This document shows, piece by piece, positions 22,465 to 22,660 of a DNA stretch of 64,000 bases. Position 1 is the stretch's first letter; the number at the start of each line of letters is the position of its first letter. Source of the DNA: Hyphomonadaceae bacterium (GTDB taxonomy: Bacteria > Pseudomonadota > Alphaproteobacteria > Caulobacterales > Aquidulcibacteraceae); assembly GCA_009773395.1 (NCBI GenBank), contig WRPI01000001.1:372001-436000 (forward strand), in the 5' to 3' direction. Made by a program: the position numbers and the translations under genes. The notes beneath the pieces were generated by a model. It ran no database searches, was not told the origin of the DNA, and saw only the letters and a program-made list of their open reading frames with translations.

Positions 22465-22660
22465 AAGGCTTAGGAAGGGTTTTTGGTGAAAACTTTGTTT
22501 TAACAAAAACCCTTCATTTATGGTCCTGCCGCCCCGAGCGCTTGTCAAGGGGCGAAGTGCAAGCATGGCGAAGCCACCCCTTGACAAGCGCTCGGGGCGG
22601 CTTTCACCATTGATACCAAGTTTTGTGAAGTTACAGGGTTCACCAAAACTTGGTCATGAC
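22465..22660. repeat. Three-hairpin intergenic element, copy C (divergent stem sequence)
   Basis: Central 25-bp perfect stem GCCGCCCCGAGCGCTTGTCAAGGGG...CCCCTTGACAAGCGCTCGGGGCGGC (22528-22601), flanked by hairpins GAAGGGTTTTTG/CAAAAACCCTTC and ACCAAGTTTTG/CAAAACTTGGT. Confidence 0.75.

What the first reader, a model, noticed from the sequence alone, without database searches (positions are those of the whole stretch)
22465..22660. Copy C keeps the three-hairpin architecture with a completely different stem sequence
The central stem is GCCGCCCCGAGCGCTTGTCAAGGGG with a perfect 25-bp complement, and both arm hairpins are perfect (12 and 11 bp) but differ in sequence from copies B, D and E. Only the inner TTGTCAA/TTGACAA and the GGCTTAGGAA end are shared. 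Pairing kept while sequence changes is what selection on structure, or a rescue mechanism such as arm-to-arm gene conversion, would give. Copy A shows the same: GCGCTATTTTaTTGTCAATCCC.
Basis: partly seen in the sequence, partly recalled or inferred. Interest (0 to 1): 0.8.

Follow-up and report, generated by a model that had tools for sequence, protein, structure and literature searches.

The report
Repeat with three self-copying hairpins
Copy C is one of about 40 members of an undescribed family of ~200-base DNA repeats that always fold into three hairpins although their sequence changes, probably because one side of each hairpin is recopied from the other during DNA replication rather than because an RNA made from it is being protected.

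Summary
Copy C (22465-22666) has a perfect 25-bp central stem and perfect 12- and 11-bp arm hairpins. It is not unique: its stem defines a subfamily of four full copies and a fragment. Copies A and C belong to the same structural family as B, D, E and F, because a covariance model trained only on 28 majority-type copies finds them at E=3e-26 and 7e-20. The same model finds full-length relatives in six of eight sampled genomes of a second genus, where DNA searches found nothing; four congeners have none. Covariation is strong in all three local hairpins and absent from the long-range terminal pairing. The evidence favours DNA-level arm copying (template switching) over RNA selection: the central loop occurs in both orientations in every lineage examined and flips at random on the arm tree, G·U mismatches are not consistently commoner than A·C, mirrored deletions occur, and no Rfam family matches. 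One exception is the right arm of the majority type (15 G·T, 0 A·C). The majority type sits inside a TA-flanked inverted-repeat element; C and A do not. REP/RAYT membership is rejected. How the core spreads is unknown. It warns that covariation in multicopy palindromes need not mean RNA.

The parts
22465..22666 (.). Copy C: whole three-hairpin core (C subfamily)
   Evidence: model R1 match 22459-22666(-), 85 bits, E=7e-20
22474..22515 (.). Copy C left-arm hairpin, 12 bp perfect (GAAGGGTTTTTG / CAAAAACCCTTC)
   Evidence: folds
22528..22601 (.). Copy C central hairpin, 25-bp perfect stem, 24-nt loop; contains TTGTCAAG / CTTGACAA
   Evidence: I10
22553..22576 (.). Central loop of copy C; present in inverted orientation in the sister copy C7:481491 (L079)
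   Evidence: alignment A3
22615..22654 (.). Copy C right-arm hairpin, 11 bp perfect (ACCAAGTTTTG / CAAAACTTGGT)
   Evidence: folds
2516..2718 (-). Copy A (A subfamily; sister copy C7:466190)
   Evidence: R1 111 bits, E=3e-26
14129..14339 (-). Copy B, majority type
   Evidence: R1 237 bits
25484..25685 (-). Copy D, majority type
   Evidence: R1 215 bits
46593..46803 (+). Copy E, majority type; -35-like TTGACA in the stem with TATAAT 19 nt downstream
   Evidence: R1 231 bits; sequence
61237..61491 (+). Copy F, degenerate copy with an extra hairpin inserted in the left-arm loop
   Evidence: R1 43 bits, E=2e-9
26903..27065 (.). Small ~163-bp inverted-repeat element with the same TIR as the outer ends of the majority type (GCATCGGTCGTTCAAGTGG...)
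   Evidence: I7; C7:398907 and 399043

Best explanation
An undescribed interspersed DNA repeat of ~200 bp with three local hairpins, a large central one between two smaller arms. SHOWN: ~39 copies in this genome in at least three subfamilies (majority, A, C); the same architecture in a second genus of the family; a nearly invariant paired GTCAA core near the loop of the central stem; covariation confined to the three local hairpins; the central loop in either orientation in the majority type, the C type and the second genus. INFERRED: perfect pairing despite sequence turnover is maintained mainly at the DNA level. During replication the hairpin forms in single-stranded DNA, the polymerase switches template within the inverted repeat and copies one arm from the other; intermolecular switches across the loop invert it. 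Copies also recombine with one another, giving mosaic loops. The majority type has additionally become the inside of a TA-flanked inverted-repeat (MITE-like) element, which probably spread it; how the C, A and second-genus forms spread is unknown. Copies sit between genes, often between convergent genes, where they are probably just tolerated.
For: Copy number and subfamilies. Same family by model: A E=3e-26, C E=7e-20, neither used in training. Second genus: full-length hits in G018, G045, G051, G049, G042, G009, best E=2e-10, though DNA searches found none. Local covariation: 95.8% of cells paired, 12 pairs changed on both sides, 66 cells against 19.0 shuffled (0/500), slid versions at most 18. 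Terminal inverted repeats: 6 cells against 4.7 shuffled, no covariation. Across subfamilies and genera: 47 of 57 pairs changed on both sides, 334 cells against 104 (max 122 of 300 shuffles). Loop orientation 17:11 in the own majority type and 16:11 in the second genus; label changes on the arm tree no fewer than random (10 vs 9.1 shuffled; 7 vs 8.8), at least 3 forced by well-supported branches in each; also 3:1 in the C type. Mirrored 1-nt deletions in both stem arms: C8:160845, C8:103942. Mismatch types: 23 G-T and 20 A-C in own copies, 22 and 12 in the second genus, 10 of the 22 from one column, 40 and 35 combined. Template switching is documented to homogenise arms and invert spacers (PMC8604942) and to create compensatory changes and loop inversions in RNA hairpins (PMC8794818).
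Against: In the majority-type right arm all 15 transition-type mismatches are G-T and none A-C, as RNA folding on one strand would give; the second genus shows 5:5. A TTGACA / NAYAAT pair follows the central stem in majority copies, but at 19-nt spacing, and the promoter scan does not flag it. Most isolated stem differences within the majority type are not mirrored (54 unmirrored, 7 mirrored, inflated by two misaligned copies), so homogenisation is slow or episodic. In the second genus arm-to-arm identity does not exceed copy-to-copy identity. Inversion could instead come from recombination between copies. No clean empty site was found, and no transposase was identified.
Confidence: 0.6

Rival explanations
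1. Selection on an RNA structure: the element is transcribed and the three hairpins act in RNA (small RNA, mRNA stabiliser or processing site), so compensatory mutations are selected.
For: Strong covariation in three helices; the right arm of the majority type tolerates G-U only (15:0); TTGACA-19-TATAAT-like sequence before the right arm.
Against: No consistent G-U excess in the other stems: left 3:10, centre 5:10, second genus centre 5:5 and right 5:5. The loop inverts freely, which would reverse any loop sequence read in RNA. Copies lie in either orientation and in convergent, tandem and divergent settings. No Rfam match: none at gathering, only implausible weak ones by E-value.
Confidence: 0.2
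2. The conserved TTGTCAAG/CTTGACAA pair is the binding or recombination core of a protein (a site-specific recombinase, transposase or nucleoid protein) that needs the cruciform or hairpin, and this protein, not template switching, inverts the loop and moves the element.
For: GTCAA is almost invariant in both arms of all 29 aligned copies from two genera while the rest of the stem turns over; loop orientation is scattered at random over the arm trees.
Against: The inverted segment is only ~22-47 bp, short for a recombinase to synapse on duplex DNA (general knowledge). No cognate enzyme was found: no PF01797 in this genome or in any of the eight second-genus genomes, no PF13358 in this genome.
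Confidence: 0.12
3. Bidirectional transcription terminator or 3'-end element between convergent genes.
For: 21 of 38 copies lie between convergent genes on a rough ORF call.
Against: No T-run follows the stems; none of the scanned terminator-like sites lies in the core of copy C or E. Tandem (13) and divergent (4) settings occur.
Confidence: 0.08

Closest known systems
Foldback or palindromic MITEs (ERIC/IRU, RUP, Correia/NEMIS type)
   Same: Short, non-coding, intergenic and multicopy; the majority type has terminal inverted repeats and TA flanks, shared with a 163-bp palindromic element in the same genome.
   Different: Three separate hairpins with a large central one; C and A forms lack these terminal repeats; pairing is kept across genera while the sequence turns over; the loop inverts.
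REP / REPIN elements with RAYT (Y1) transposases
   Same: Intergenic palindromes, enriched at gene 3' ends.
   Different: About 200 bp against the 20-40 bp stated for REPs (PMC3733652 abstract); no Y1 transposase in this genome or any second-genus genome.
Alphaproteobacterial intergenic palindromes (Bru-RS1/2, RIME, Sinorhizobium ABC motifs)
   Same: Alphaproteobacterial multicopy palindromic intergenic repeats (Bru-RS is cited in PMC2267715; the rest is recalled).
   Different: No sequence comparison with them was run here; the three-hairpin layout with a GTCAAG/CTTGAC core is not recalled for any of them.
Template-switch hairpin evolution (PMC8794818, PMC8604942)
   Same: Arm homogenisation, compensatory changes and loop or spacer inversion.
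   Different: There seen in rRNA, microRNA and yeast genes, with loop inversions rare and loops or spacers short; here in a dispersed repeat with ~24-bp arms and loops of 22-47 nt, with orientation scattered at random over the copies.

Membership tests
Same family as copies B, D, E (three-hairpin repeat) | Full-length match to a covariance model trained on majority copies only | tested here: met
   A: 111 bits, E=3e-26; C: 85 bits, E=7e-20
Structured RNA family (Rfam) | Match to a curated covariance model | tested here: not met
   0 matches in the window at gathering; two weak, implausible matches by E-value
Structured RNA under selection | G-U tolerated on one strand more than A-C in the stems | tested here: inconclusive
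   Own left 3:10, centre 5:10, right 15:0; second genus 12:2, 5:5, 5:5; combined 40:35
REP/REPIN (RAYT-dependent) | Y1 (REP-associated tyrosine) transposase in the genome | tested here: not met
   PF01797: 0 in own genome and 0 in all eight second-genus genomes, though found in 19 of the 61 genomes; control genomes ring
REP/REPIN (RAYT-dependent) | 20-40 bp palindrome tagged GTAG or CGTC | tested here: not met
   Core is ~200 bp with 24-25 bp stems; definition from PMC3733652
MITE | Terminal inverted repeats with a target-site duplication | tested here: inconclusive
   Majority type: TIR TAGMGCATCGGACGTTCAAGTTG above the 95% null at one or both ends in most copies, TA at the ends of the better-preserved ones. 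Full C and A copies: none above the null. Duplication not proven by an empty site.
MITE | Autonomous partner (cognate transposase) in the genome | tested here: inconclusive
   No DDE_3 (PF13358, IS630-type) in the genome; other transposase families not tested
Intrinsic terminator | GC-rich hairpin followed by a T-run | tested here: not met
   (copies C and E)
sigma-70 mobile promoter | TTGACA and TATAAT 16-18 nt apart | tested here: not met
   Core spacing is 19 nt in copy E and the scan does not list it; none in the core of copy C

The most novel reading that the evidence does not exclude
A mobile DNA element recognised by its hairpin architecture rather than its sequence: an unidentified enzyme uses the conserved GTCAAG/CTTGAC pair in the central cruciform, inverting the loop in passing, so that the three-hairpin shape is inherited across genera while nearly every base pair is replaced.
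Probability: 0.12. Interest if true: 0.8.

Novelty: new variant of a known kind. Interest (0 to 1): 0.5.

Why it matters
Covariation is the standard proof of a conserved RNA structure. Here is a multicopy family with strong, statistically clear covariation in three helices, where loop inversion points to DNA arm-to-arm copying as the cause. It would be a natural test set for separating the two explanations and a caution for covariation screens that include repeats. It also shows that a bacterial repeat can keep its shape across genera after ordinary DNA search no longer sees it.

Tried and rejected
REP/RAYT: no Y1 transposase in this genome or any second-genus genome. IS630-type partner (DDE_3): none in this genome. 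Rfam: nothing credible. Long-range pairing of the terminal inverted repeats as part of the structure: no covariation. Empty sites for B, C and D in four congeners: gene order is broken at all three places, so uninformative. Naming other carriers by a pattern scan of GTDB contigs: one hit in a cyanobacterial MAG, taken as chance and not followed up. Plasmids and viral contigs: none. A chromosome-position explanation of the clustering by GC skew on sampled stretches: no clear pattern. A combined alignment containing both strands of each copy (A4) was not used as such; the best strand per locus was kept. R-scape is not available; pair counting with shuffles and slid controls was used instead.

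Full report
Observation. Copy C is as described. The central arms 22528-22552 and 22577-22601 are 25 nt and 100% complementary, 24 nt apart. The left (12 bp) and right (11 bp) arm hairpins are perfect. The 202-nt core folds at z = -10.3 as RNA and -11.9 as DNA, with 0 of 200 shuffles as stable.

Copies in the genome. The window lies in a 2.63-Mb, 17-contig genome. Its best named protein relatives are from Aquidulcibacter and a Hyphomonadaceae bacterium, so it is probably a member of the Caulobacterales (inference). DNA searches with E, C and A and an exact pattern search for the central hairpin give about 39 copies, listed with flanks. They fall into a majority type (B, D, E and about 25 more; F is a degenerate member), a C subfamily (C7:394455 = copy C, 364793, 481491, 319314, and a fragment at 458362) and an A subfamily (C7:374520 = copy A, 466190, and a fragment at 358052). 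So copy C's stem is not a private replacement but the mark of a subfamily.

One family. A covariance model built only from 28 majority copies (R1) finds copy A at 111 bits (E=3e-26) and copy C at 85 bits (E=7e-20) over its full length. Over 61 related genomes it finds nothing in four congeners but many full-length matches in six of eight sampled genomes of another genus of the same family (G018 13, G045 7, G051 7, G049 4, G042 3, G009 3; best E=2e-10), and one partial match in G008. DNA searches in the same relatives with E and C had found none. The second-genus elements keep the three hairpins, GTCAAG/CTTGAC, and an AACAATT stretch after the stem where the majority type has NAYAAT.

Covariation. 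On the majority alignment (A1) the three local hairpins have 95.8% of cells paired, 12 pairs changed on both sides and 66 doubly changed cells, against 19.0 in shuffles (0/500) and at most 18 in slid versions. The same copies could also pair their terminal inverted repeats (GCTTNGGAATGG / CCATTCCNAAGC), but there the variable column does not covary (6 cells against 4.7). So it is the local hairpins that are kept. With one strand kept for each of 29 copies from all subfamilies and both genera, 47 of 57 pairs have changed on both sides, with 334 doubly changed cells against a shuffled mean of 104 (maximum 122 of 300), while GTCAA/TTGAC stays nearly invariant (this alignment was fitted to the model and leans towards it). 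Within the majority type, arm-to-arm identity in a copy is 95.5% and copy-to-copy identity of the left arm 88.5%; between types it is 62-66%. In the second genus arm-to-arm (89.1%) does not exceed copy-to-copy (90.9%).

Why the pairing is kept. Four observations point to DNA. First, the central loop is found in both orientations with the arms unchanged: 17 to 11 in the majority type, 16 to 11 in the second genus, and 3 to 1 in the C type, where C7:481491 carries the inversion of copy C's loop, one base apart. On trees built from the arms the orientation is scattered at random (10 changes against 9.1 shuffled; 7 against 8.8), with at least three changes forced by well-supported branches in each. 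Second, RNA pairing would tolerate G-U but not A-C; own copies show 23 G-T and 20 A-C, second-genus copies 22 and 12, of which 10 G-T are one column, and the combined set 40 and 35. Third, some stems carry the same one-base deletion in both arms, as in C8:160845 and C8:103942, and C7:494916 has a largely different stem whose arms match each other. Fourth, some loops look like mosaics of other loops, for example C7:360425. Template switching between inverted-repeat arms is known to homogenise arms and invert spacers (PMC8604942) and can create and maintain hairpins (PMC8794818). The counter-evidence is the majority-type right arm, where 15 of 15 transition-type mismatches are G-T; that arm may be transcribed, or its strand may suffer a mutational bias. 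Isolated stem differences are mostly unmirrored, so correction is not immediate.

How it spreads. Most majority copies lie within a larger unit of roughly 340-415 bp whose ends read TA-GMGCATCGGACGTTCAAGTTG in both directions. Very similar ends bound a separate 163-bp palindromic element with at least 13 copies, one of whose relatives is in the window at 26903-27065. No IS630-type transposase (PF13358) is present. Full C and A copies show no such ends. A RAYT origin is rejected. Copies sit mainly between genes, 21 of 38 between convergent genes by a rough ORF call. No clean empty site could be found: at B, C and D the gene order differs in the congeners. The mechanism of spread of the core is therefore open.

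Limits. R-scape was not available. Copy counts come from searches with candidate caps, except the exact pattern search. Cell counts are not independent events. The second genus is unnamed. No transcription data exist here.

Noticed in passing
G000 contigs C7 and C8 (window = C7:372001-436000): 25 of 26 exact central-hairpin matches that look genuine lie on two contigs making up 37% of the assembly, whereas the 163-bp element is spread over more contigs. GC skew on sampled stretches does not explain it.
   Followed up: partly
26903-27065 in the window; L151:809-972 and others: A separate near-palindromic 163-bp element (TAGAGCGTTGGATGTTCAAGTTG ends, TA-flanked), at least 13 copies in this genome and in none of 60 relatives.
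   Followed up: partly
19525-19691 and 62547-62713: Another repeat pair, 86% identical over 167 nt, with its own inverted ends (TAGGTCACAGACTCATTAAAAAGGGTG / CACACTTTTTAATGAGTTTGTGACCTA).
   Followed up: no
11500-27200: In four congeners gene order is broken at the positions of copies B, C and D, and at few other places in this stretch; the repeats may mark or cause rearrangement points.
   Followed up: partly
61237-61491 (copy F) and C8:103942 (L108): An extra hairpin (CCAAAAAGT...ACTTTTTGG) sits at the tip of the left arm in both copies.
   Followed up: no
C7:458088 and C7:458362 (L081): A majority-type copy abuts half of a C-type copy broken in its loop; the downstream flank of this majority copy is of the left type, as if arms had been exchanged.
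   Followed up: partly
L199, L205, L212, L213 (second genus): The three-hairpin elements are bordered by other palindromes (gtcatccccgcc...gcggggacct, cccggatcggc...gccgtccgggatgaca), sometimes in tandem, and several lie near contig ends.
   Followed up: no
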